Shown: in pieces, positions 1,425 to 13,193 of the stretch
Numbering within the stretch: the stretch's first letter is position 1
Layout of the letters: each line of letters opens with the position of its first letter
Origin: Methylophilales bacterium LSUCC0135
Lineage (GTDB): Bacteria > Pseudomonadota > Gammaproteobacteria > Burkholderiales > Methylophilaceae
Reading direction: 5' to 3'
DNA length: 64,000 nucleotides
Assembly: GCA_001704575.1 (NCBI GenBank)
Contig: MCAW01000001.1
Coordinates: forward strand, 16,008 to 80,007
The notes under the pieces: generated by a model
Databases searched by the model: none
What the model was told of the DNA's origin: nothing
The model's input: only the letters and a program-made list of their open reading frames with translations
Translations under genes and position numbers: made by a program

Positions 1425-2078
1425 ATGAATGCGAAAAAACGGCTGGAGATTTTTCGCAGACTGAGTGCTGCCATTCCCGAGCCGACCACCGAGCTGGTGC
1501 ATCATTCGACATTCGAGCTGCTGATTGCCGTGATCCTCTCGGCGCAGGCCACGGACAAGGGCGTCAATCTGGCCACTGCCAGGCTCTTCCCCGTTGCCAA
1601 TACGCCGGCTGCCATACTGGCGTTGGGTGTGGAGGGACTGGAATCTTACATCAAGACCATCGGCCTCTACCGCAGCAAGGCCAAAAACGTGATCGCAACT
1701 TGCCAGCGTCTGCTCGACCTGCATGACGGTCAGGTGCCGGATACGCGCGAAGCGCTGGAGAAGCTGCCCGGTGTCGGCCGCAAAACAGCCAATGTCATAT
1801 TGAACACGGCGTTCGGCAAACCGACCATTGCCGTCGATACGCACCTCTTCAGGCTCGGCAACCGCACCGGACTTGCGTCGGGAAAAACGCCGCTGGAAGT
1901 CGAAAAGAAACTCATGAAAACCGTGCCTGCTGAATATTTGCGTGATGCGCACCATTTGCTCATTCTGCATGGGCGCTATGTGTGCATCGCACGCAAACCC
2001 AAATGCGAAATCTGCGTGATTGCCGATTTATGCGAATACAAGGCCAAGGGCCTGCCACTGCAGGAGGCGCGCGCATGA
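1425..2078 (+). CDS. nth: Endonuclease III
   Basis: Bifunctional DNA N-glycosylase/AP lyase of base-excision repair that removes oxidised pyrimidines. The 217-residue protein has the helix-hairpin-helix LPGVGRKTANV with the catalytic lysine, the catalytic aspartate in AVDTHLFRL, and a C-terminal [4Fe-4S] cluster ligand set C-x6-C-x2-C-x5-C in the segment starting YVCIARKPKCEIC. All catalytic and cluster residues are present and the length is typical. It follows the rnf operon and its stop overlaps the start of the FIST gene (ATGA at 2075-2078), so it is probably co-transcribed with both neighbours. Confidence 0.97.
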   Translation: MNAKKRLEIFRRLSAAIPEPTTELVHHSTFELLIAVILSAQATDKGVNLATARLFPVANTPAAILALGVEGLESYIKTIGLYRSKAKNVIATCQRLLDLHDGQVPDTREALEKLPGVGRKTANVILNTAFGKPTIAVDTHLFRLGNRTGLASGKTPLEVEKKLMKTVPAEYLRDAHHLLILHGRYVCIARKPKCEICVIADLCEYKAKGLPLQEARA

Positions 2079-3184
2079 CGCGTGTTGCTACCGGGCTTGC
2101 CACGGGCAGCGAGCCGAATCCGGCGCTGGCCGCCAGAGCCGTCGAGTCGGCCATGCAGCGCGCCGGTATTCAGGTCGCCAGCAGTGTCCTGCTGATCCTG
2201 ACTTCGGAATTTGCACGAGACCCGCAGCCCGCGCTGAAAGCAGCCGCCAAGACGGCCAATTGCACCCAGGTGGTCGGCTGCTCGGCCATGGGACTCTACA
2301 CCGAGGAAGACTGGGTGCTGGATGCCCCGGCCGTTGCCGCCATGGTGTTCCCCGATCAGATCGGGCTGGAACCGCCCTCGGCAACTGACAGCAAACAGTT
2401 GCTGCTGACCCTGGCGGCACCGAATGCGCTCAATACGACCTGGATGACAGCACCCGGCATACGTTTTGGCGGCGTTTCCGGCGATGCGATCGGGCAGGGG
2501 CCGTTTTCGGTCTGGCAGTTCGGCAAGGGCTCCGCGCTTGGTCACTGTGAAGCTGCATTGCGCGGCGTGCGCGGTGCTGTGGCTGCATCGCACGGCTTGC
2601 GGGTGCTCAACCTGCCGCGCGCGGTGAGTAAAGTCAACGGCCTCGACCTCGTCATGCTCGATGACAAACAGGCGCTGGCTTGCCTCAATACCGCACGCGC
2701 TGGCTATGACACACTGCCGATGCATTACGTCATGGCGATTTTTGCCGATACGCCTGAAGCCATCAGCGCAGGCAATTATCAGGTTGCCTCACTGATCAGC
2801 GGTAACGAAGATGACAACTCGGTTACATTGGCCAAGCCCTTGAACAAGGGGCAGTATCTCAGCTGGGCCATGCGGGATACCGAAATGGCCGTGGCCGACC
2901 TGCAGCAAACGGCATCCAATCTGCAAACGAGTCTGGGCGTAAAACCCGAGTTCGGACTTTTCTTTTCCTGCCTGGGGCGTGGCCCGTATTTTTACGGCGG
3001 CCTGGACCGCGATCTGCTCTCATTGCGTCAGCGTTTTCCCGGCATGCCCATCATCGGCTTTTATGGTAACGGTGAGATTGCGCCGGTCAACGGTGGACAG
3101 CAAACCGGCTGCGAGCTGCTCGAATATTCGGCCGTTCTCGGTCTCTTTTCGCGTAGTGAGCCGCCGGGACAAACGGGAGCATAG
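2075..3184 (+). CDS. FIST domain-containing protein
   Basis: A 369-residue cytoplasmic protein with the FIST N (about residues 20-215) and FIST C (about 225-350) architecture. The sequence has the family signature GCSAMGLYTEE near the N-terminus and the C-terminal PIIGFYGNGEIAPVNG. FIST domains are predicted small-ligand sensors, often found with signalling proteins; the ligand is not known for most members. I chose the ATG at 2075, which overlaps the nth stop, over an in-frame ATG at 1982 inside nth. No output domain (HAMP, GGDEF, kinase) is fused or adjacent, so its signalling partner is not visible. It sits directly before a DUF1841 gene. Confidence 0.85.
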   Translation: MTRVATGLATGSEPNPALAARAVESAMQRAGIQVASSVLLILTSEFARDPQPALKAAAKTANCTQVVGCSAMGLYTEEDWVLDAPAVAAMVFPDQIGLEPPSATDSKQLLLTLAAPNALNTTWMTAPGIRFGGVSGDAIGQGPFSVWQFGKGSALGHCEAALRGVRGAVAASHGLRVLNLPRAVSKVNGLDLVMLDDKQALACLNTARAGYDTLPMHYVMAIFADTPEAISAGNYQVASLISGNEDDNSVTLAKPLNKGQYLSWAMRDTEMAVADLQQTASNLQTSLGVKPEFGLFFSCLGRGPYFYGGLDRDLLSLRQRFPGMPIIGFYGNGEIAPVNGGQQTGCELLEYSAVLGLFSRSEPPGQTGA

Positions 3185-3186
3185 CG

Positions 3187-3627
3187 GTGGCATTATTCAA
3201 CCCGAGCCGCGATCAGGTGCGGCAATTCTTTTTTGATGCCTGGTCGAAGTTCAAGGCCGGGCAACCTTTGAGTGATCTGGAAGCGATTGCGCTGGAGGTG
3301 ATGCAGATGCACCCGGAGTATCATCAGGTGCTCGATACGCCGGACCGCTATTTGGAACAGGCCTATTTCCCCGAAATGGGCGAGACCAATCCCTTCCTGC
3401 ACATGAGTCTGCATCTTTCCATTCTGGAGCAGCTGAGCATAGACCAGCCGCCCGGCATCAAACCTGCATACCAAACGCTGTTGCAGAAATTGGATGATGC
3501 CCATCAGGCCCAGCACGTGCTGATCGAGTGTCTGGCCGAGACCATCTGGCAGGCGCAGCGATCGCAGCGTGCAATGGATGCCGATGCTTATATAGCCTTG
3601 ATCCGACAAAAATCCACTACCGTCTGA
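3187..3627 (+). CDS. DUF1841 family protein
   Basis: A 146-residue protein matching the DUF1841 family, found mainly in beta- and gammaproteobacteria and of unknown function. Visible hallmarks are the N-terminal NPSRDQVRQFFFDAW, the central NPFLHMSLHLSILEQ and a C-terminal segment rich in HVLIECLAETIWQAQR. It is predicted soluble with no signal peptide. The start is GTG at 3187, two bases after the FIST stop, so the two are likely one transcript. No function is assigned. Confidence 0.85.
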   Translation: MALFNPSRDQVRQFFFDAWSKFKAGQPLSDLEAIALEVMQMHPEYHQVLDTPDRYLEQAYFPEMGETNPFLHMSLHLSILEQLSIDQPPGIKPAYQTLLQKLDDAHQAQHVLIECLAETIWQAQRSQRAMDADAYIALIRQKSTTV

Positions 3628-3661
3628 CCGGCTTCAACGAAAACTGTGCTTGAATGACGCC

Positions 3662-4222
3662 ATGACCGCAAAAAATCCGCACGACTGGCTCAACGAACAC
3701 GGCGACTATCTCTATCGTTTTGCGCTGGCGCGTCTGAGAGATACGCACCTGGCCGAAGATGCGGTGCAGGAGACTTTGCTGGCGGCGATCAAAAGCCCGT
3801 CTTTCGAGGGCAAGTCCGCGCCGCGCACCTGGCTTACCGGCATACTCAAGCACAAGATTGTCGATATCATCCGCAAGCAGATTACTAAAACGCCGGTTGA
3901 TGACATGAGCCGGCATGGCGCTGACGAAGATGCAACCGATGAATTCTTCAATCAGCGCGGACACTGGGCCGATGCGCCACTTGCATGGCCGGCGGCGGAG
4001 AATGCGCTGCAACAGCAGCAGTTTCTGGCCGTGCTGCAGCGCTGTCTCGACCGCTTGCCGCCCAAGCTTGCCCGGCTTTTTCTGCTGCGGGAGGTCCATG
4101 AAGATGATAACGAAAGCATTTGTAAGGAACTGCAAATCAGCCCGACCAATGCATGGGTCATGTTGTACAGGGCGCGCATGAGCTTGAGGCAATGTCTCGA
4201 ACTGCACTGGCTGGCAAAATGA
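3662..4222 (+). CDS. ECF-type RNA polymerase sigma factor
   Basis: An ECF sigma factor of about 186 residues. Region 2 spans about residues 10-75 (DYLYRFALARLRDTHLAEDAVQETLLA and a W-containing promoter-melting segment RTWLTGILKHKIVDIIRKQ). Region 4 spans about 125-180 (CLDRLPPKLARLFLLREV, then a helix-turn-helix ending in MLYRARMSLRQCL). It is followed by a small zinc-binding anti-sigma and then by a bufferin-like peptide, an MNIO enzyme and its partner, so it probably controls that set, as ECF factors do in other bufferin loci. An in-frame TTG at 3650 could add four residues; neither start has a convincing ribosome site. It is distinct from RpoE at 9183. Confidence 0.9.
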   Translation: MTAKNPHDWLNEHGDYLYRFALARLRDTHLAEDAVQETLLAAIKSPSFEGKSAPRTWLTGILKHKIVDIIRKQITKTPVDDMSRHGADEDATDEFFNQRGHWADAPLAWPAAENALQQQQFLAVLQRCLDRLPPKLARLFLLREVHEDDNESICKELQISPTNAWVMLYRARMSLRQCLELHWLAK

Positions 4223-4250
4223 ACTTTCTCAACCGACAGGATTCATTCAG

Positions 4251-4499
4251 ATGCTGAGTTGCAAACAAGCCAGCCAACTGGTTTCACAGGCACTCGACCG
4301 GCCGCTGACGCGGCGCGAGCGCTGGGCCTTGCGCTTGCATTTGTGGATGTGTGCTGGCTGCCGGCGATTCAACCTTCAGCTGGTTTTTATCCGTCTCGCA
4401 GTCGGGAGAATTCTGAGCGAGACCGAGCAGAACGGGAATTTGCGTTTGTCACCCGAAGCAAGGTTACGCATGACCAAGGCGCTGGAGTCCGGGCAATAA
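4251..4499 (+). CDS. Zinc-finger anti-sigma factor (ZAS-like)
   Basis: An 82-residue protein with the zinc-binding anti-sigma motif H-x3-C-x2-C in HLWMCAGC (residues 30-37), preceded by an upstream conserved cysteine in LSCKQAS. This matches the putative zinc-finger (zf-HC2) family of ECF anti-sigma factors. I see no convincing transmembrane helix, so it may act as a soluble, possibly redox- or metal-responsive regulator; that is inference. It lies 28 bases after the ECF sigma gene and 55 bases before the Cys-repeat peptide. The pairing sigma then anti-sigma is the standard arrangement. Confidence 0.83.
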   Translation: MLSCKQASQLVSQALDRPLTRRERWALRLHLWMCAGCRRFNLQLVFIRLAVGRILSETEQNGNLRLSPEARLRMTKALESGQ

Positions 4500-4554
4500 G
4501 CCCCGGCATGCCGGCGTATTCCATTGTTTGATTGATATATTCAGGAGATTCATG

Positions 4555-4881
4555 ATGAAAGCTTCCAAATCCGCACTGACACTTGCTCTCGGCGGTGCAT
4601 TCGCCGCATCCATCGCTGCAGCGCCGCTGGCTGCAGCAGAAAATCCATTCGCATTGAAACCGCTGGCTTCCGGCTATATGGTGGTGGAACATCACGGTGA
4701 AAAAGATAAAGAAGGCAAATGCGGGGCTGGCAAGTGCGGCGCTGAAATGAAGTCGGAAAAGAAAACCGATGCCGAAGGCAAATGCGGCACCGGCAAGTGC
4801 GGCAGCGAAATGAAATCTGAAAAGAAGGCCGGCGCTGAGGGCAAATGCGGTACCGGCAAGTGCGGCGCCGAGAAGAAGTAA
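4555..4881 (+). CDS. Bufferin/HvfA-like secreted Cys-repeat RiPP precursor
   Basis: A 108-residue precursor with a signal peptide (about residues 1-28, ending APLAAA) and a low-complexity C-terminus made of a 21-residue unit repeated about 2.7 times. Each unit contains EGKCG followed by a second GKCG; cysteines are at 56, 61, 77, 82, 98 and 103. EGKCG repeats define HvfA of Haemophilus influenzae and the BufA2-type bufferins, whose cysteines are converted to copper-binding heterocycles by a DUF692/MNIO enzyme with a DUF2063 partner; both partners are encoded directly downstream. AGGAG at 4543-4547 sits seven bases before the ATG at 4555; an ATG at 4552 would be close for that site. Copper buffering in the periplasm is inferred from the family. 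Confidence 0.88.
4711..4881 (+). repeat. 63-bp in-gene tandem repeat encoding EGKCG units
   Basis: Units start at 4711, 4774 and 4837; the last is cut short by the stop codon. Each encodes EGKCG-x-GKCG-x-E followed, in the first two, by MKSEKK and a short spacer. The DNA units are similar but have synonymous and spacer differences, so they are not a recent perfect duplication. The repeat sets the number of modifiable cysteines in the peptide. Confidence 0.85.
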
Positions 4882-4882
4882 T

Positions 4883-5764
4883 TTGTCGCGACTGGCCGAT
4901 ATCAGAGGCGCCGGGCTGGGGCTCAAACGCGAGCTTGTGCCACAGATTCAGGCGGCCTGGGGCAGTCCGCTGATTGCCTCGATCGATTTTCTCGAAATCG
5001 CGCCGGAAAACTGGATAGGGGCGGGCGGCAAATCAGCCAGCCAGCTGGCCTGGTGTGCCGAACGCTACCCTCTGGTGTGTCACGGTCTTTCGCTGTCGCT
5101 GGGCGGGCCGCATCCGCTGGATGAAGTCTTTCTCCAACGCGTGCGGCAATTTCTCGATAAGCACCGGATTCCTTTGTATACCGAACATCTGAGCTACTGC
5201 TCGGATGGCGGCTATCTTTACGATTTGCTGCCGATACCGTTTACCGCAGAAGCCGTGCATTACGTAGCGGAACGCATCCGGCGCACGCAGGATATTCTGG
5301 GCCGCCGTATTGCGGTCGAGAATGCTTCATTCTATGTTGCGGCGCCTATCGCCGAGATGGACGAGTTGACCTTTCTGCGCGCCGTACTGGCAGAAGCCGA
5401 TTGCGATCTGCATCTCGATATCAATAATATCTACGTCAACAGCGTCAATTTTGGTTATGACCCTTACGCGTTCCTGCGCGGCATTCCCGGCGAACGTATT
5501 GTCTATGGGCATATAGCCGGTCATGACCGGCAGGCCGACGATCTCATCATCGACACGCATGCGCAGGATGTGATCGACCCGGTATGGGACATGCTGCGGC
5601 AGGCCTACACGGAGTTCGGCACTTTTCCGACCCTGCTGGAGCGCGACAGCAATATCCCCCCGCTGGACCTGCTCATGGCCGAAGTGGACAGGATCGCCGC
5701 CTTGCAGCAGGCTTGCAGAGTCAACACCAAAGCGGAGACTGCAACGGAGGTCATGGCATTGTGA
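4883..5764 (+). CDS. DUF692/MNIO family iron oxidative enzyme (BufB/HvfB-like)
   Basis: A 293-residue TIM-barrel enzyme of the DUF692 family, now called MNIO (multinuclear non-heme iron-dependent oxidative enzymes). Members oxidise cysteines in peptide substrates; HvfB and BufB act on EGKCG-type precursors. Candidate iron ligands are all present: H67 ([10 protein letters not shown]), E101/H102 (EHLSY), E146/N147 (ENASFY), D179/N182 (DINNIYVN), H210/H214 (GHIAGH), D224/H226 (DTHAQD) and E253 (LLERD). The start is TTG at 4883, two bases after the precursor stop with a weak AGAAG upstream; no closer ATG exists, so low translation relative to the precursor is likely. Its stop overlaps the next gene's start. 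Confidence 0.9.
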
Positions 5765-6546
5765 GTCAGGCCGGCAAGCTGCCCTTGTTCCAGCAATACC
5801 AGCTGCAGTTCAGCGCGCACATCCGCAACCCTGATGCGGTCGCCAAACCGGAACGGGTGTCTGCCAAACGCATGCGCGTCTACCGGGCATTGGTGTTCGA
5901 TAATCTCGACACCACCCTGGGCGCCTGTTTTCCCGTCTGCAAACAGATACTGGGCAAGCGCCGCTGGCGGCAGCTCATACGCAGCTTTCTTGTGCATCAC
6001 CGTGCTGCAAGCCCGCTGTTCAGGCAGATTCCGGAGGAGTTTCTGGGATTTCTGCAAACCTTGCCGGGTATTGCCGGCAGCCCCGAACTGCCGCCGTTTT
6101 TCAACAGCCTGGCACATTATGAATGGGTGGAGCTCGCCGTCTCGGCGGCAGAAGCGCCAAATGTTCCGGCAGGCATGGATACCGCAGGCGATCTGCTACA
6201 GGGATATCCAGTGCTCACCGGCGCGTTGATGCTGCTCCGCTATGATTATCCGGTGCAGCAGATTTCACTACGTTTTCAACCGCAGGCGCCGTTGCAAACA
6301 CCGGTTGATCTGCTGGTGTTCCGCGATGCTTCTGATCAGGTCCGGTTTGCTGAACTCAACGCCGTCACGGCCCGGCTTGTGGCCCTGTTGCAGACGCAAA
6401 AGCTGACCGGCTTGCAGGTGCTGGAGCAAATCGCGGGCGAACTGGCGCATCCGCAACCACAGATCATGATCGATTTCGGCAGCCGCGTGCTGGCGGACCT
6501 CCGCGTGCAAGGCGCGATTATCGGCGTGCAGCGGATGGCAGTCTGA
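5761..6546 (+). CDS. DUF2063 family MNIO partner protein (BufC/HvfC-like)
   Basis: A 261-residue protein with an N-terminal DUF2063 domain (about residues 5-95, including [28 protein letters not shown] and the HYEWVELAV segment near 120). In HvfABC and bufferin systems this partner binds the precursor and delivers it to the MNIO enzyme. The GTG at 5761 overlaps the DUF692 stop (GTGA) and has GGAGG at 5746-5750, so translational coupling is likely; this start excludes a longer upstream extension. The gene order precursor, DUF692, DUF2063 is diagnostic. No DoxX gene, sometimes found with such loci, is visible here. Confidence 0.88.
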
Positions 6547-6549
6547 ACG

Positions 6550-7323
6550 ATGCGAATGCTGCTGGACAGATTCAGGCGCTGGCGCCAGCAGCGTATCCTG
6601 CAACGCCACGCCTTGCCGGAAGTTGAGTGGCAGTCGGCTGTGGCGGAACTTCCGCTGTTGCACGGCCTTGATGCTGACGAGCACAAGCGTCTGCGCGAAC
6701 TGGCGACCCTGTTTCTTTACCGCAAGCAGGTGATGGCAGCCGAAGGTTATCGCCTGAGTGAAAAGGTGCGGATCAAGATTGCGGCCCAAGCCTGCCTGCC
6801 GGTGCTCAACCTCGGACTGGAATGTTACTCGGGCTGGGTGTCAGTGATCGTCTATCCGGATGAGTTCGTGCCCGGCCGCGAATACACCGACGAAGCCGGT
6901 GTGGTGCACATCGACCGCTTGCCGATGATAGGCGAGTCATGGCAGCGCGGGCCGGTGATTCTCTCTGCGGCTGACGTCGAGCATGCCGGCGCGGTTGATG
7001 GCGTCAATGTCGTCATCCACGAGTTCGTCCACAAGCTTGACATGTTGAACGGCGATGCCGACGGTTTTCCGCCGCTTCACCGCGGCATGTCTGCGGCTGC
7101 CTGGACACAGGCCTTCACGCAGGCGTATGAGGATTTTTGCCGCCAGGTGGATAGCGGCGCGGTGACTGCCATTGATCCTTACGCGGCGGAGAATCCTGCC
7201 GAATTCTTCGCCGTGATCAGTGAAGTGTTCTTCGAGAAGCCGCATGTCCTGCTGGCCGAATACCCGCAGGTTTACCGCCAGCTGGCGGATTTTTACCGGC
7301 AGGATCCGGCCGGCCGGTTTTGA
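6550..7323 (+). CDS. mtfA: MtfA-family zinc metallopeptidase
   Basis: Homologue of MtfA (DgsA/Mlc anti-repressor, YeeI), a zinc aminopeptidase-like protein with a fold related to anthrax lethal factor. The 257-residue protein has the metal-binding HEFVHKLD (about residues 157-164) and a downstream glutamate in NPAEFFAVISEVFFE, both expected of the family. In E. coli MtfA binds the glucose regulator Mlc; no Mlc gene is present here, so the partner is unknown. It starts three bases after the DUF2063 stop and may belong to the same transcript, although a functional link with peptide maturation is not established. Confidence 0.9.
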   Translation: MRMLLDRFRRWRQQRILQRHALPEVEWQSAVAELPLLHGLDADEHKRLRELATLFLYRKQVMAAEGYRLSEKVRIKIAAQACLPVLNLGLECYSGWVSVIVYPDEFVPGREYTDEAGVVHIDRLPMIGESWQRGPVILSAADVEHAGAVDGVNVVIHEFVHKLDMLNGDADGFPPLHRGMSAAAWTQAFTQAYEDFCRQVDSGAVTAIDPYAAENPAEFFAVISEVFFEKPHVLLAEYPQVYRQLADFYRQDPAGRF

Positions 7324-8946: not shown

Positions 8947-8980
8947 TTGATTCGGTGTTTTTCCGGCTCTGCCGTTGGAT

Positions 8981-9008
8981 GAACTTATGCGAGTTTAGCG
9001 CTGTCTTT
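8981..9008 (+). promoter_or_regulatory. Candidate sigma-E-type promoter of rpoE operon
   Basis: GAACTT at 8981-8986 is followed after 17 bases by TCTTT at 9004-9008, resembling the sigma-E pattern GAACTT-N16/17-TCTnA. It lies about 175 bases before the conserved rpoE start and 63 bases before an upstream in-frame ATG. Autoregulation of rpoE operons by sigma-E is common, which supports the assignment, but the -10 match is imperfect. Confidence 0.45.
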
Positions 9009-9182
9009 AAGTACAAGCTAGCTATCGGTAATGTAATAAAGCCACAAGCATTAGAGCCTGGGAGACGACAAATGCTGAATACCAAGAATCTGGAAGAATT
9101 TTCACGGCTGGGCTTCGTTGATACAACGATGCAAGGTTATACTCCGTCAGTTGAAAAGGTGTTGATAAGGAGTAAGTCCTCT

Positions 9183-9800
9183 ATGGGTGTCAATCCCACA
9201 GCGGGCAACCGTGAAATTGATCAGGAGTTGGTCGAGCGCGCGCAGCGCGGCGACAAGCAGGCTTTCGGCATGCTGGTGGACAAGTACCAGCGCAAGCTCG
9301 GCAGACTGCTTTCGCGACTGATCCGCGATCAGGCAGAAGTTGAAGATGTGGTGCAGGAATCCTTTATCAAGGCTTACCGCGCGCTGCCCAACTTCCGTGG
9401 TGACAGTGCCTTTTACACCTGGCTGTACAGAATCGGCATCAACACCGCGAAGAATTATCTGGTTTCGATGGGCCGCAGGCCGCAGGTAAGCAACGACATC
9501 GAAATAGAGGATGCAGAAAACTTTGAGGATGCCAACGAGCTGCGCACCATGGAAACGCCGGAAACGGAGATGATGAACAAGGAAATCGCGCAGACCGTGA
9601 ACGATACCGTAGCGGCCCTGCCGGAGGAGTTGCGCACGGCAATCACGCTACGCGAAATCGAAGGCTTGAGCTACGAAGAAATTGCAACGTTGATGGATTG
9701 CCCGATCGGAACCGTGCGATCACGCATCTTCCGGGCACGCGAGACAATCGCACAGAAGCTCCGTCCGTTGCTTGATACCCCACAGGACAAACGCTGGTAA
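9183..9800 (+). CDS. rpoE: RNA polymerase sigma factor RpoE (AlgU)
   Basis: Envelope-stress ECF sigma factor, 205 residues from the ATG at 9183. Region 2 includes LVERAQRGDKQAFGMLVDKYQRK and the DQAEVEDVVQESFIKAYRAL / FYTWLYRIGINTAKNYL segments. Region 4 includes LPEELRTAITLREIEGLSYEEIA and GTVRSRIFRAR. The start at 9183 gives the N-terminus usual for the family and has AAGGAG at 9167-9172. An in-frame ATG at 9072 with its own GGGAG would add 37 residues. Downstream are rseA, mucB, rseC and mucD, the standard regulatory set, so control is by RseA sequestration and regulated proteolysis. Confidence 0.94.
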   Translation: MGVNPTAGNREIDQELVERAQRGDKQAFGMLVDKYQRKLGRLLSRLIRDQAEVEDVVQESFIKAYRALPNFRGDSAFYTWLYRIGINTAKNYLVSMGRRPQVSNDIEIEDAENFEDANELRTMETPETEMMNKEIAQTVNDTVAALPEELRTAITLREIEGLSYEEIATLMDCPIGTVRSRIFRARETIAQKLRPLLDTPQDKRW

Positions 9801-9828
9801 ACCGGCAAATGCAGAGCAGGAGAAACAC

Positions 9829-10299
9829 ATGAAAGATCAAATTTCGGCGCTGATGGATGACGAGATTTCGCTGAAGGATGCGGAATATCTTTATACGGCG
9901 CTCAAGGCCAACGGCGAGAGCCGCGAGTGCTGGCAGACTTATCACCTGATCGGTGATGCCATGCGGCAAAGCCCCGTGCTCAAGGCCGGCCTGCGTGACC
10001 GTATCATGCAGCAGATTGAGATGGAACCGGCCGTTCTCGCCCCGCGCAATGAAGACGTGGCGGTCGCAAACGCAACCAGAAAAACCTCGCTGGTTTGGTC
10101 GGTGGCAGCTTCCTTTGCCGCTGTCATGTTCGTCGGTCTGATCGTGCTGCAGCAGCAGCCGCAGCAAACCGAAGAAATCATGCCACTCGAAATTGCCCAG
10201 CACTTCCCGGCAGAATACCTGCAAGCGCATCAGTCGCTTGCGCCCAGTAGCGCCGCCTACTACATTCAATCCGCAGCGTTCTCGGAGAATTCCCGCTAA
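9829..10299 (+). CDS. rseA: Anti-sigma-E factor RseA (MucA-like)
   Basis: A 156-residue single-pass membrane anti-sigma factor. The N-terminal RseA domain (MKDQISALMDDEISLKDAEY and the CWQTYHLIGDAMRQ segment) binds sigma-E in the cytoplasm. A transmembrane helix spans about residues 88-107 (VWSVAASFAAVMFVGLIVL), and the periplasmic tail is about 50 residues. GCAGGAG at 9815-9821 precedes the ATG at 9829; the in-frame upstream ATG overlaps rpoE and is unlikely. The stop overlaps the mucB start by one base. In the family, site-1 and site-2 proteolysis releases the sigma factor. Confidence 0.92.
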   Translation: MKDQISALMDDEISLKDAEYLYTALKANGESRECWQTYHLIGDAMRQSPVLKAGLRDRIMQQIEMEPAVLAPRNEDVAVANATRKTSLVWSVAASFAAVMFVGLIVLQQQPQQTEEIMPLEIAQHFPAEYLQAHQSLAPSSAAYYIQSAAFSENSR

Positions 10300-11264
10300 T
10301 GAAAAAGTGGTTGTTGGCTTGCTTTCTGGCAAGCCATTTTTCTTTTGCGTGGGCCGAGCCGGTAACGCAGGCTGAGCCCTGGCGGATGCTGGAAAAAGCG
10401 GCGCATGCCGCCAGGGATTTGAGCTACAAAGGTATTTTTACCTACCAGTCGGGCGAAAACAGCCGTTCGATCGAGATCACCCACATGAATTCCGGCCAGG
10501 GTGAATATTCAAGAGTAGTCATGCTGGATGGTTTGCCGCGTGAGGTCTTGAGCCAGGGCAGCGATATTGTAATCTTCAGCCAGAGAAACGAAAAAATCGT
10601 CATCGAGAAGCGTCGCGGCAAAAATCTGTTCCCGGCTTTACTGCCGGTCAATCTGGATGCGGTGAAGCTGAGTTACCAGGCCCGCGTTTCCGGACAGGAA
10701 CGTATTGCCGGGAGAGAGGGAGTAGTGGTATTGCTGGAGGCGCGCGATGCCTACCGCTACAGCTACAAGTTGTTGACTGACAAGGAATACGGTCTGTTGT
10801 TGAAGGTGACAACCTTGAACGAGGGCAAGGAGGCGATAGAACATATTGCTTTCAATCAGTTGAATCTGCTGAACATCAATGACATGAACTGGTTCAAGCC
10901 CAAAGTTGACCCGATGAAGCCATACGTGATGGAAGATGAGATGCCTGCAAGCGTCGCGAGCGGTAACGGTGAATGGAAACTGGGCGACTTGCCCAGCGGT
11001 TACAAGCTGATTGATCACATCAAGCGCAAGGTTCCGGGTAAATCTGTTGCTGTCAATCAGCTGATTTTCTCGGACGGGTTGTCTTCTGTTTCGCTCTTCA
11101 TCGAGCCGTTGGCCAAGGGTGCCAGACCCAGAGTCGGTCATACCATGGCAGGCCCGACCAATTTTTACGCGCAAGTCAGCTCCGGCTACCAGATCGTTGC
11201 GGTTGGCGAGGTGCCACAGGCCGCCGTGCTGCATATCGCCAATTCCGTCAATTTCAAGAAATAA
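10299..11264 (+). CDS. rseB: Sigma-E regulatory protein MucB/RseB
   Basis: A 321-residue periplasmic protein with a signal peptide (about residues 1-20) and the MucB/RseB fold: a large N-terminal LolA-like domain containing SYKGIFTYQSG and a smaller C-terminal domain from about residue 225. RseB binds the periplasmic part of RseA and shields it from proteolysis until it senses mislocalised lipopolysaccharide or lipoproteins. The start ATG overlaps the rseA stop (taATG), implying translational coupling. Length and order match the conserved operon. Confidence 0.93.
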   Translation: MKKWLLACFLASHFSFAWAEPVTQAEPWRMLEKAAHAARDLSYKGIFTYQSGENSRSIEITHMNSGQGEYSRVVMLDGLPREVLSQGSDIVIFSQRNEKIVIEKRRGKNLFPALLPVNLDAVKLSYQARVSGQERIAGREGVVVLLEARDAYRYSYKLLTDKEYGLLLKVTTLNEGKEAIEHIAFNQLNLLNINDMNWFKPKVDPMKPYVMEDEMPASVASGNGEWKLGDLPSGYKLIDHIKRKVPGKSVAVNQLIFSDGLSSVSLFIEPLAKGARPRVGHTMAGPTNFYAQVSSGYQIVAVGEVPQAAVLHIANSVNFKK

Positions 11265-11762: not shown

Positions 11763-13193
11763 ATGATCATAAAAGTGTTTGCGATTTTTGCATTCTGTTT
11801 CGCTGTTGCCGGCTACCCGCTGCAGGCTGCGGCTGGCGCCAGTTACCAACTTCCCGACTTTACCGAACTGGCTGAAAAACAAGGTCCGGCCGTGGTCAAT
11901 ATCAGCATTACGCAGGTCATGCAAGCCAACGCTTCCCCGTTTGGCGGCATGCCGAATGACGAAGCCCTGAGTGAGTTCTTCCGCCGTTTCGGCATTCCGA
12001 TGCCTGGCGCCCCGGGGCAAGGTGCACCACAGCAGGAGTACAAGTCTCAATCACTGGGTTCAGGCTTTATCATCAGCAGCGATGGCTATATTCTGACCAA
12101 TGCTCACGTCATCAGAAATGCCGAAGAGGTGGTGGTCAAGCTCAATGACAAGCGTGAGTTCACCGCCAAAATCATCGGCGCAGATGCGCGTACCGATGTC
12201 GCGATGCTCAAGATCGAAGCCAGCGGACTGCCCAAAGTAACGCTGGGCAACCCTGACAAACTCAAGGTCGGCGAATGGGTGGTCGCTATCGGCTCGCCGT
12301 TCGGCCTCGAAAGCACATTGACCGCAGGCGTGGTCAGCGCCAAGGGGCGTGCCCTGCCGCAGGAGAATTTCGTGCCTTTCATTCAGACTGACGTAGCCAT
12401 CAATCCCGGTAACTCCGGCGGCCCGCTGTTCAACCTGAAGGGTGAGGTGGTCGGTGTCAACTCGCAGATCTACAGCCGCACCGGCGGTTATATGGGCCTG
12501 TCCTTCGCGATTCCGATTGACGTCGCGATGGATATTTCCGATCAGCTGCGCGCAAGCGGCAAGGTCACACGAGGCTGGCTTGGTATCGGCATCCAGGAAA
12601 TCAACAAGGAACTGGCGGAATCCTTCGGCATGAAGAATACCAACGGAGCGCTGGTCTCCAATGTGGAGAAAGGCAGCCCGGCAGAAAAGGGTGGTCTTGA
12701 AGCAGGGGACGTCATCCTAAAGTTTGACGGCAAGCCGATTTCAACCTCGTCAGACCTGCCACGGATTGTCGGCGCTACCAAGCCCGGCAAGCAGGTGCCG
12801 GTCGAGATTCTGCGCAAGGGCGGCTCGAAAACACTCAGCATCGCTCTGGGTGAGATGCCCACCGAAAAGGATGAAGTCGTGGCCAGCAGCAAGGCGCCGG
12901 GCAAGACCGAGGTTAACCGTCTTGGTCTGATCCTGCGTGATCTGACCCCGCAGCAGAAGAAAAAGATCAACGGCAAGAACGGCTTGCTGGTAGTTGATTC
13001 GGAACCGCCGGCAGCGCAGGCAGGTATCCGTCGCGGTGATATCATCCTCGGCCTGAACAATACCGAAGTGCAGGGGCTTGAGCAGTTCGACAAGCAACTG
13101 GCAACGGTTGCGGCGGGCAAGACCGTTGCACTTCTGGTACTGCGCGGTGAAAACACCTTGTATGTGCCGGTCAAGGTAGGCGCAGCAAAGTAG
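11763..13193 (+). CDS. mucD: Periplasmic serine endoprotease MucD (DegP-like)
   Basis: A 476-residue HtrA/Do-family protease and chaperone of the periplasm, with a signal peptide (about 1-26). The trypsin-like domain carries the catalytic triad: His in TNAHVIRN, Asp in ARTDVAMLK and Ser in NPGNSGGPLF. Two PDZ domains follow (about 265-360 and 380-470) that govern oligomerisation and substrate recognition. It completes the sigma-E operon, starting immediately after rseC. In related bacteria it degrades misfolded envelope proteins and restrains sigma-E activation. Confidence 0.95.
   Translation: MIIKVFAIFAFCFAVAGYPLQAAAGASYQLPDFTELAEKQGPAVVNISITQVMQANASPFGGMPNDEALSEFFRRFGIPMPGAPGQGAPQQEYKSQSLGSGFIISSDGYILTNAHVIRNAEEVVVKLNDKREFTAKIIGADARTDVAMLKIEASGLPKVTLGNPDKLKVGEWVVAIGSPFGLESTLTAGVVSAKGRALPQENFVPFIQTDVAINPGNSGGPLFNLKGEVVGVNSQIYSRTGGYMGLSFAIPIDVAMDISDQLRASGKVTRGWLGIGIQEINKELAESFGMKNTNGALVSNVEKGSPAEKGGLEAGDVILKFDGKPISTSSDLPRIVGATKPGKQVPVEILRKGGSKTLSIALGEMPTEKDEVVASSKAPGKTEVNRLGLILRDLTPQQKKKINGKNGLLVVDSEPPAAQAGIRRGDIILGLNNTEVQGLEQFDKQLATVAAGKTVALLVLRGENTLYVPVKVGAAK

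What the first reader, a model, noticed from the sequence alone, without database searches (positions are those of the whole stretch)
3662..6546. Bufferin/HvfABC-like RiPP locus with its own ECF sigma and anti-sigma
Five consecutive same-strand genes encode an ECF sigma factor, a zinc-finger anti-sigma, a secreted precursor with EGKCG repeats, a DUF692/MNIO enzyme with all candidate iron ligands and a DUF2063 partner. The last three match the HvfABC and bufferin systems, where cysteines become copper-binding heterocycles. This copy has six cysteines in paired motifs and joins the maturation genes to a dedicated sigma switch, suggesting copper- or stress-induced peptide production.
Basis: partly seen in the sequence, partly recalled or inferred. 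Interest (0 to 1): 0.85.

Follow-up and report, generated by a model that had tools for sequence, protein, structure and literature searches.

The report
Copper-peptide operon with stress sigma switch
A bacterium related to methylotrophs carries a five-gene unit that very likely makes a copper-binding modified peptide next to a zinc-finger-controlled stress switch; the same kit is already known from gonococcus and Haemophilus, and relatives show that the switch and the peptide genes can live without each other.

Summary
In detail: window 3662-6546 holds an ECF sigma, a zinc anti-sigma (ZAS), a six-Cys EGKCG precursor, an HvfB-type MNIO and an HvfC partner on one strand, all five above curated family cut-offs. 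It is an oxazolin/captophorin (EGKCG) operon, not a bufferin: the BufB cut-off is missed, and neither DUF2282 nor DoxX is present. The coupling to ECF/ZAS is not new: a gonococcal record read here has DoxX-precursor-MNIO-HvfC-ECF-ZAS in a row, and published work puts the Neisseria operon under sigmaE/MseR and the Haemophilus cluster under RpoE2. "Its own" sigma is only partly right. In 100 sampled genomes of the window's family, 49 of 57 HvfB genes have this ECF 0.65-0.85 kb upstream, but 5 genomes lack ECF and ZAS there and 3 carry a broken ECF, while 3 keep ECF-ZAS at the same site without hvfABC. So the pair probably has other targets, and the peptide genes can be expressed without it. Best reading: a redox-released sigma raises a periplasmic copper-binding thiooxazole peptide. 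Expression and chemistry were not testable here. New member of a known kind; modest interest.

The parts
3662..4222 (+). ECF sigma factor, TIGR02943 family, 186 aa; ATG at 3662, no evident Shine-Dalgarno
   Evidence: 200.5 bits, cut-off 162.2
3647..3655 (+). TGCTTGAAT element ending 6 nt before the ECF ATG; TGnTTnAAT is found 4-9 nt before the ECF start in 20 of 52 loci; promoter-like (possible leaderless message), function inferred
4251..4499 (+). zinc anti-sigma (ZAS), 82 aa, Cys4, His30, Cys34, Cys37
   Evidence: (NF052368 77.6 bits, cut-off 50)
4555..4881 (+). HvfA-type precursor: signal-peptide-like N-terminus, then AENPF, then six KCG cysteines in three pairs (an ATG also at 4552)
   Evidence: (NF050137 50.6 bits, cut-off 19.5); signal peptide read by eye, no predictor run
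4883..5764 (+). HvfB-type MNIO (DUF692) maturase, TTG start
   Evidence: (NF003818 405.2 bits, cut-off 360)
5761..6546 (+). HvfC partner (DUF2063 + NGO1945_C domain), GTG start overlapping the hvfB stop
   Evidence: (NF050145 265.8 bits, cut-off 142)
6550..7323 (+). M90 metallopeptidase (MtfA-like), 4 nt after hvfC; beside hvfC only in the window and 2 of 80 related loci (L001, L076), so not a conserved part
3187..3627 (+). DUF1841 gene just upstream; conserved neighbour, used as the landmark for recognising lost genes

Best explanation
This is an EGKCG-type captophorin (oxazolin-like) operon behind a TIGR02943 ECF / zinc anti-sigma pair, a counterpart, in the window's family, of the Neisseria sigmaE-MseR operon. 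Proposed working: the soluble ZAS protein holds the sigma through its Zn site (C4, H30, C34, C37); thiol oxidation or zinc loss frees the sigma; the sigma raises transcription of the peptide genes and of further, unlinked genes; HvfBC converts the six KCG cysteines to 5-thiooxazoles in the cytoplasm; the peptide is exported by Sec and binds copper in the periplasm. Shown here: gene content, family membership, motif positions, conserved synteny, separation of the two halves in both directions. Inferred from relatives: sigma control, redox trigger, thiooxazole chemistry, export, copper binding. The pair is a neighbour with a wider job rather than a switch dedicated to this peptide.
For: All five proteins above curated cut-offs; MNIO nearest solved relative 3bww (2.1e-72), HvfC matches gonococcal NGO1945 3dee (1.6e-12). 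Gonococcal record: DoxX, EGKCG precursor, MNIO (51% identity over 272), HvfC (25% over 205), ECF (37% over 181), ZAS (30% over 53) in one run, ZAS with the same C-H-C-C spacing. Published: sigmaE lies in the co-transcribed operon NMB2140-2145 and is inhibited by MseR, Cys34 essential, Cys4 and Cys37 contributing (PMC2893595, passages); all four genes of the Haemophilus DoxX cluster are HOCl-induced and strongly RpoE2-dependent (PMC7907618, section 29); gonophorin and oxazolin carry 5-thiooxazole, gonophorin and fontiphorin were seen to bind Cu (PMC13097082, passages and section 11). Synteny 49 of 57. ZAS pattern C-25-H-3-C-2-C in 54 of 59 ZAS sequences; the 5 misses are 2 cut by contig ends and 3 at loci with a broken sigma. 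Separation.
Against: No target promoter of the sigma was found: the dyad search before hvfA gave nothing clear, and the leading dyads before the ECF gene look like conserved DUF1841 coding sequence. The genome's one MsrB gene was located, but its upstream DNA was not examined. The precursor misses the strict HvfA equivalog cut-off (43.8 against 95). DoxX, part of the hvf and ngo clusters, does not adjoin (and the ORF list). N. meningitidis sigmaE did not respond to the oxidants tried (PMC2893595), so the trigger may differ. Outside the window's family the linkage is rare (3 of 80 HvfB genomes).
Confidence: 0.78

Rival explanations
1. The sigma/anti-sigma pair is truly dedicated: it regulates only its own operon, and the separations seen elsewhere are secondary decay.
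For: Tight synteny in 49 of 57 genomes. In several loci with a broken sigma the ZAS is degraded too (L044, L048, L057), as expected of a unit.
Against: ECF-ZAS with complete reading frames and no hvfABC at the same site in G001, G070, G099; hvfABC with no TIGR02943 match over cut-off anywhere in the genome in G089, G057, G064, G098, G022; class-wide 3 of 80 HvfB genomes have the pair beside it.
Confidence: 0.2
2. The genes are only neighbours: the ECF/ZAS pair regulates other genes, and the hvf genes are read from the same or another housekeeping promoter without sigma control.
For: Separation in both directions; the TGnTTnAAT element before the ECF gene in 20 of 52 loci could be a housekeeping promoter serving the whole run; one sigma-less locus (L050) keeps a TGCTTCAAT upstream of hvfA.
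Against: In Neisseria and Haemophilus the homologous clusters are sigma-dependent (PMC2893595, PMC7907618); hvf-linked sigmas fall in several parts of the ECF tree; 8 of 33 other fetched ECF/ZAS loci have an MNIO, HvfC, EGKCG precursor or DoxX gene in the stretch, one of them (L109) 7.4 kb away.
Confidence: 0.2
3. The peptide is a bufferin or another MNIO product with a different modification or another metal.
For: MNIO enzymes catalyse many modifications (PMC12452194, abstract); metal specificity of EGKCG products is still open (PMC13097082, section 11).
Against: BufB cut-off missed, HvfB cut-off passed; KCG pairs as in oxazolin (PMC13419390).
Confidence: 0.08

Closest known systems
Neisseria sigmaE/MseR operon (NMB2140-NMB2145, NGO1948-NGO1943) with the ngo / gonophorin genes
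   Same: Same protein kinds: EGKCG precursor, HvfB-type MNIO, HvfC, TIGR02943 ECF, ZAS with the same C-H-C-C spacing
   Different: Order permuted: ECF-ZAS first here, last there; DoxX gene there, none beside the locus here; the two ECFs fall in distant parts of the ECF tree, the gonococcal one on a long branch
Haemophilus influenzae hvf operon / oxazolin with RpoE2-HrsE
   Same: HvfA/B/C kinds; three paired motifs with six Cys; small ZAS-type anti-sigma; published sigma dependence of the cluster
   Different: There the sigma genes lie in the msrAB region, not in the peptide cluster (PMC7907618); HvfX (DoxX) present there. No Haemophilus sequence was compared in a call
Bufferins (Buf1/Buf2, GIG operons)
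   Same: MNIO plus DUF2063 partner; Buf1 clusters may carry sigma and NrsF genes (PMC12452194, passages)
   Different: DUF2282 or Buf_6/12Cys precursors; NrsF named as anti-sigma there; BufB cut-off not reached here
Plasmid-borne cluster of Acinetobacter ursingii pAURM-2
   Same: DoxX, KCG precursor, MNIO (51%), HvfC (28%), ECF (38%), ZAS (48% over 44) together
   Different: On a 34 kb plasmid; ECF-ZAS at the 3' end, DoxX on the other strand

Membership tests
HvfABC / oxazolin (EGKCG captophorin) | HvfB-type MNIO | tested here: met
   NF003818 405.2 bits, cut-off 360
HvfABC / oxazolin (EGKCG captophorin) | HvfC partner with DUF2063 and RRE-type domain | tested here: met
   NF050145 265.8 bits, cut-off 142; PF09836 and PF22106; RRE fold itself not modelled
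HvfABC / oxazolin (EGKCG captophorin) | Precursor with repeated EGKCG motifs | tested here: met
   NF050137 50.6 bits, cut-off 19.5; six KCG
HvfABC / oxazolin (EGKCG captophorin) | Sec signal peptide on the precursor | tested here: inconclusive
   read by eye from the translation; no predictor available
HvfABC / oxazolin (EGKCG captophorin) | Strict HvfA equivalog NF050188 | tested here: not met
   43.8 bits, cut-off 95; so of the HvfA family, not HvfA itself
HvfABC / oxazolin (EGKCG captophorin) | HvfX (DoxX) gene in the cluster | tested here: not met
   Neighbours are DUF1841, M90, FIST, NadB; two DoxX genes elsewhere in the genome; DoxX-like ORF in the fetched stretch of 5 of 80 loci with one query. 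A minimal cluster without it is known (fon BGC, PMC13097082)
HvfABC / oxazolin (EGKCG captophorin) | 5-thiooxazole on Cys and copper binding | not testable with these tools
   chemistry
Bufferin | BufB MNIO and DUF2282 or Buf_6/12Cys precursor | tested here: not met
   NF050167 265.6 bits, cut-off 310; no Pfam family on the precursor; no Buf_6/12Cys model was available
Neisseria-type sigmaE/MseR pair | TIGR02943 ECF beside a small ZAS anti-sigma with Cys4, His30, Cys34, Cys37 | tested here: met
   positions as in PMC2893595
Neisseria-type sigmaE/MseR pair | Sigma controls the peptide genes and msrAB | tested here: inconclusive
   no sigma-target promoter found; upstream of the msrB gene not examined

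The most novel reading that the evidence does not exclude
The ECF/ZAS pair is a general thiol- or envelope-stress regulator that has come to sit beside captophorin genes more than once with different sigma lineages, and in the window's family the two halves are repeatedly uncoupled, so that some lineages make the copper peptide free of stress control and others keep the regulon without the peptide.
Probability: 0.4. Interest if true: 0.42.

Novelty: new member of a known kind. Interest (0 to 1): 0.3.

Why it matters
[quoted passage not shown] This family offers environmental strains with the switch present, absent, broken, or kept without the peptide: a natural set for asking whether these peptides serve copper or oxidant stress, and what else the sigma controls.

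Tried and rejected
Sigma-70 and terminator scan: only consensus matches (4 promoter-like against 1.5 expected, 8 terminator-like against 4.5), none used. Dyad search for an ECF promoter before hvfA and before the ECF gene: no usable motif. TGnTTnAAT element: 20 of 52 ECF starts, 32 without it; on both strands of the same 80 loci 50 of 36214 ATGs have it, and these 50 include the 19 locus ECF sites; the ECF test also tried several in-frame ATGs per gene, and related loci are not independent. It is absent in the two nearest loci L001 and L076. In the own genome the 6-nt-gap form occurs 6 times (reversed-pattern control 0) and only the ECF copy starts a long ORF, the others 18-52 aa, so no regulon came of it. 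A CCGG stem-loop before hvfA looked conserved by eye; over 57 spacers the mean z was 0.16, 1 was below -2 (L001), the window's was 0.41, so dropped. MsrB gene: only the ORFs around it were listed. PHROGs: a sigma family for the ECF, nothing for the MNIO. Plasmid search with the sigma alone: 107 records, all under 60% identity, rows shown mostly Burkholderia glumae, not followed. M90 peptidase as a part: rejected. Broken sigma genes come largely from metagenome assemblies; sequencing error cannot be excluded, above all for G037. Structure prediction was not run.
Full report
What is there. Window 3662-6546 encodes five same-strand genes in the order ECF sigma, zinc anti-sigma, EGKCG precursor, MNIO, DUF2063/HvfC. 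Each protein passes a curated cut-off: TIGR02943 200.5 bits (162.2), NF052368 77.6 (50), NF050137 50.6 (19.5), NF003818 405.2 (360), NF050145 265.8 (142), with Pfam agreeing for all but the precursor, which has no Pfam match. The MNIO is nearest to solved 3bww (2.1e-72) and HvfC to 3dee (1.6e-12), which is gonococcal NGO1945 (PMC12452194). This is far from chance. The MNIO misses the BufB cut-off (265.6 against 310), so it is an EGKCG-type, oxazolin-like system and not a bufferin in the strict sense; the precursor misses the strict HvfA equivalog (43.8 against 95). A peptidase M90 gene follows hvfC by 4 bases, but only in the window and 2 of 80 related loci.

Whose genome. The nearest MNIO loci are Methylophilaceae or unclassified betaproteobacterial assemblies, and several contigs of the sampled family have the same lengths as named Methylophilaceae contigs (for example 257,942 bases, Methylophilus rhizosphaerae), so I take the window's family to be Methylophilaceae; this is inference.

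What is already known. Meningococcal sigmaE (NMB2144) and its ZAS anti-sigma MseR (NMB2145) lie in the co-transcribed operon NMB2140-2145; Cys34 is essential, Cys4 and Cys37 contribute (PMC2893595, passages; regulon paper PMC3240639, passages). I read the homologous stretch of a gonococcal record of 2.17 Mb filed among plasmids: DoxX, EGKCG precursor, MNIO, HvfC, ECF, ZAS follow one another. The window's proteins match at 51% (MNIO), 25% (HvfC), 37% (ECF) and 30% over 53 residues (ZAS), and both ZAS proteins show the C-25-H-3-C-2-C spacing. The gonococcal and an Acinetobacter plasmid ECF pass TIGR02943 too (283.8 and 238.3 bits). In H. influenzae the DoxX, COG3767, COG3220/UPF0276 and DUF2063 genes are induced by HOCl and strongly depend on RpoE2, held by the small anti-sigma HrsE (PMC7907618, passages and section 29). 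Oxazolin's precursor has three AEGKCGEGKCG motifs, its six Cys becoming 5-thiooxazoles (PMC13419390, passages); gonophorin, the ngo product, has 5-thiooxazoles and bound 1-2 Cu, and the class is named captophorins; that paper already cites the RpoE2 study (PMC13097082, passages and section 11). About 2,000 Buf_EGKCG precursors were collected earlier; the section on them names DoxX but no sigma genes, its figure not being held (PMC12452194, abstract, passages and section 15). The Legionella GIG paper was seen in passages (PMC5413113). Searches (their listed rows; most subscription journals are not held) showed no paper on captophorin genes of Methylophilaceae: the five MNIO papers listed contain neither 'Methylotenera' nor 'Methylophilaceae'. 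The two PNAS papers on oxazolin and bufferins are not held.

How general. One scan for the MNIO brought 80 loci, the best of a larger number. By script, 52 of 80 have an ECF match at E < 1e-40 within 1.5 kb upstream, 4 only weaker pieces, 6 have too little upstream sequence, and 18 have none; of these 18, four (L021, L036, L050, L056) are loci with the DUF1841 landmark and 14 lie in other groups such as Nitrosospira. Two of the 52 (L044, L012) have a shortened sigma. In 100 sampled genomes of the window's family 56 have a TIGR02943 sigma over cut-off and 57 an HvfB over cut-off; 49 of the 57 HvfB genes have that sigma 656-843 bases upstream on the same strand. The frames of all 49 were not read one by one; stops flagged in some rows are terminal in the two read (L105, L107), and Methylophilus sigmas end complete at 180 residues. 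In 232 genomes sampled over the class, 27 have the sigma and 80 HvfB over cut-off; by their coordinates 3 (the window's genome, G171, G209) have both together. So the linkage belongs to one family, with scattered cases elsewhere.

Both halves can be lost. All 8 family genomes with HvfB but no over-cut-off sigma upstream were looked at. Five have DUF1841 followed by the precursor with no sigma or anti-sigma found between (G089, G057, G064, G098; G022), and none of the five has a TIGR02943 match over cut-off elsewhere. Three have the sigma in pieces (G007, G065; G037, where it lies on another contig that ends inside a precursor gene). In L021 a 13-residue stretch like the sigma remains in place (tblastn E 0.15, weak). 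Conversely G001, G070 and G099 keep ECF and ZAS with complete frames and the C-H-C-C pattern behind DUF1841, while a search for precursor, MNIO and HvfC in the fetched stretch finds nothing at E up to 1. G070 and G099 have another MNIO elsewhere, below the HvfB cut-off; G001 has no match to that model. A fourth, G024, has ECF-ZAS without hvf, but no DUF1841 landmark was found. These are genome counts, not independent events, though they fall in several genera (tables).

Different sigma lineages. In a tree of 52 ECF proteins, 13 hvf-linked sigmas including the window's lie in a 17-row set (98/97) with four that have no hvf; one of the 13 (L097) comes from another family. Three further hvf-linked ones (L053, L065, L080) lie just outside it; the gonococcal, Acinetobacter and G209 sigmas lie elsewhere. 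The hvf label takes 5 changes, at least 4 forced by starred branches, counting only the two labelled groups; 22 of 500 shuffles do as well. The gonococcal branch is long. This fits repeated coupling, or one old coupling often lost; the tree does not decide. Of 36 listed sigmas with no HvfB over cut-off beside them 33 were fetched: all 33 have a ZAS next to them, and 8 have an MNIO, HvfC, EGKCG precursor or DoxX gene in the stretch (8-9 kb, 16 kb for L109), 30 bases to 7.4 kb away. Of four such MNIOs tested, three pass the BufB cut-off (L114, L118, L109) and L115 does not (295.2 against 310).

Regulation. In 20 of 52 loci TGnTTnAAT ends 4-9 bases before the ECF ATG, against 50 of 36214 ATGs in the same loci, the ECF sites included; the window has it at 3647-3655. 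The place fits a -10 element for a leaderless message, but TTGAAT is a poor sigma-70 -10 (recalled) and the nearest relatives lack it, so it is a lead only. No credible target site of the sigma was found.

Reading. The sequence shows the parts and their comings and goings. From studied relatives I infer that thiol oxidation or zinc loss at the anti-sigma frees the sigma, that the sigma raises the peptide genes among others, and that the peptide becomes a copper-binding thiooxazole peptide in the periplasm. The finding is a permuted member of a known kind without DoxX beside it; its worth lies in the comparative series.

Noticed in passing
L100 (Acinetobacter ursingii pAURM-2, NZ_AP018826.1) 1780-5410: DoxX, KCG precursor, MNIO, HvfC, ECF and ZAS together on a 34 kb plasmid, so the module with its switch can be plasmid-borne.
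   Followed up: partly
L101 (Moraxella sp. DOX410 plasmid, NZ_CP135142.1) 2975-4147: An annotated IS4 family transposase gene sits between the MNIO and DUF2063 genes of a similar plasmid cluster.
   Followed up: no
L110 (genome G013, same genus as the window) 3964-5362: A second, separate ECF-ZAS pair followed directly by a DoxX gene, away from that genome's hvf locus.
   Followed up: no
L114 and L118: ECF-ZAS facing a convergent run of BufB-type MNIO, HvfC-like and DoxX genes: this sigma family beside bufferin-type maturases with ZAS as the anti-sigma.
   Followed up: partly
window 8955-11264 and 11763-13193: A second ECF sigma, then genes that look like RseA/MucA and RseB/MucB, then a DegP-like protease, about 2.4 kb after hvfC's end; names from reading the translations, no family search run.
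   Followed up: no
NZ_CP119142.1 and NZ_CP119140.1 in the plasmid collection: Records of about 2.17 Mb labelled gonococcal plasmids look like chromosomes.
   Followed up: no
L082 and L083 (window's genome): Two DoxX genes far from the hvf locus could supply the missing HvfX role; their neighbourhoods were not studied.
   Followed up: no
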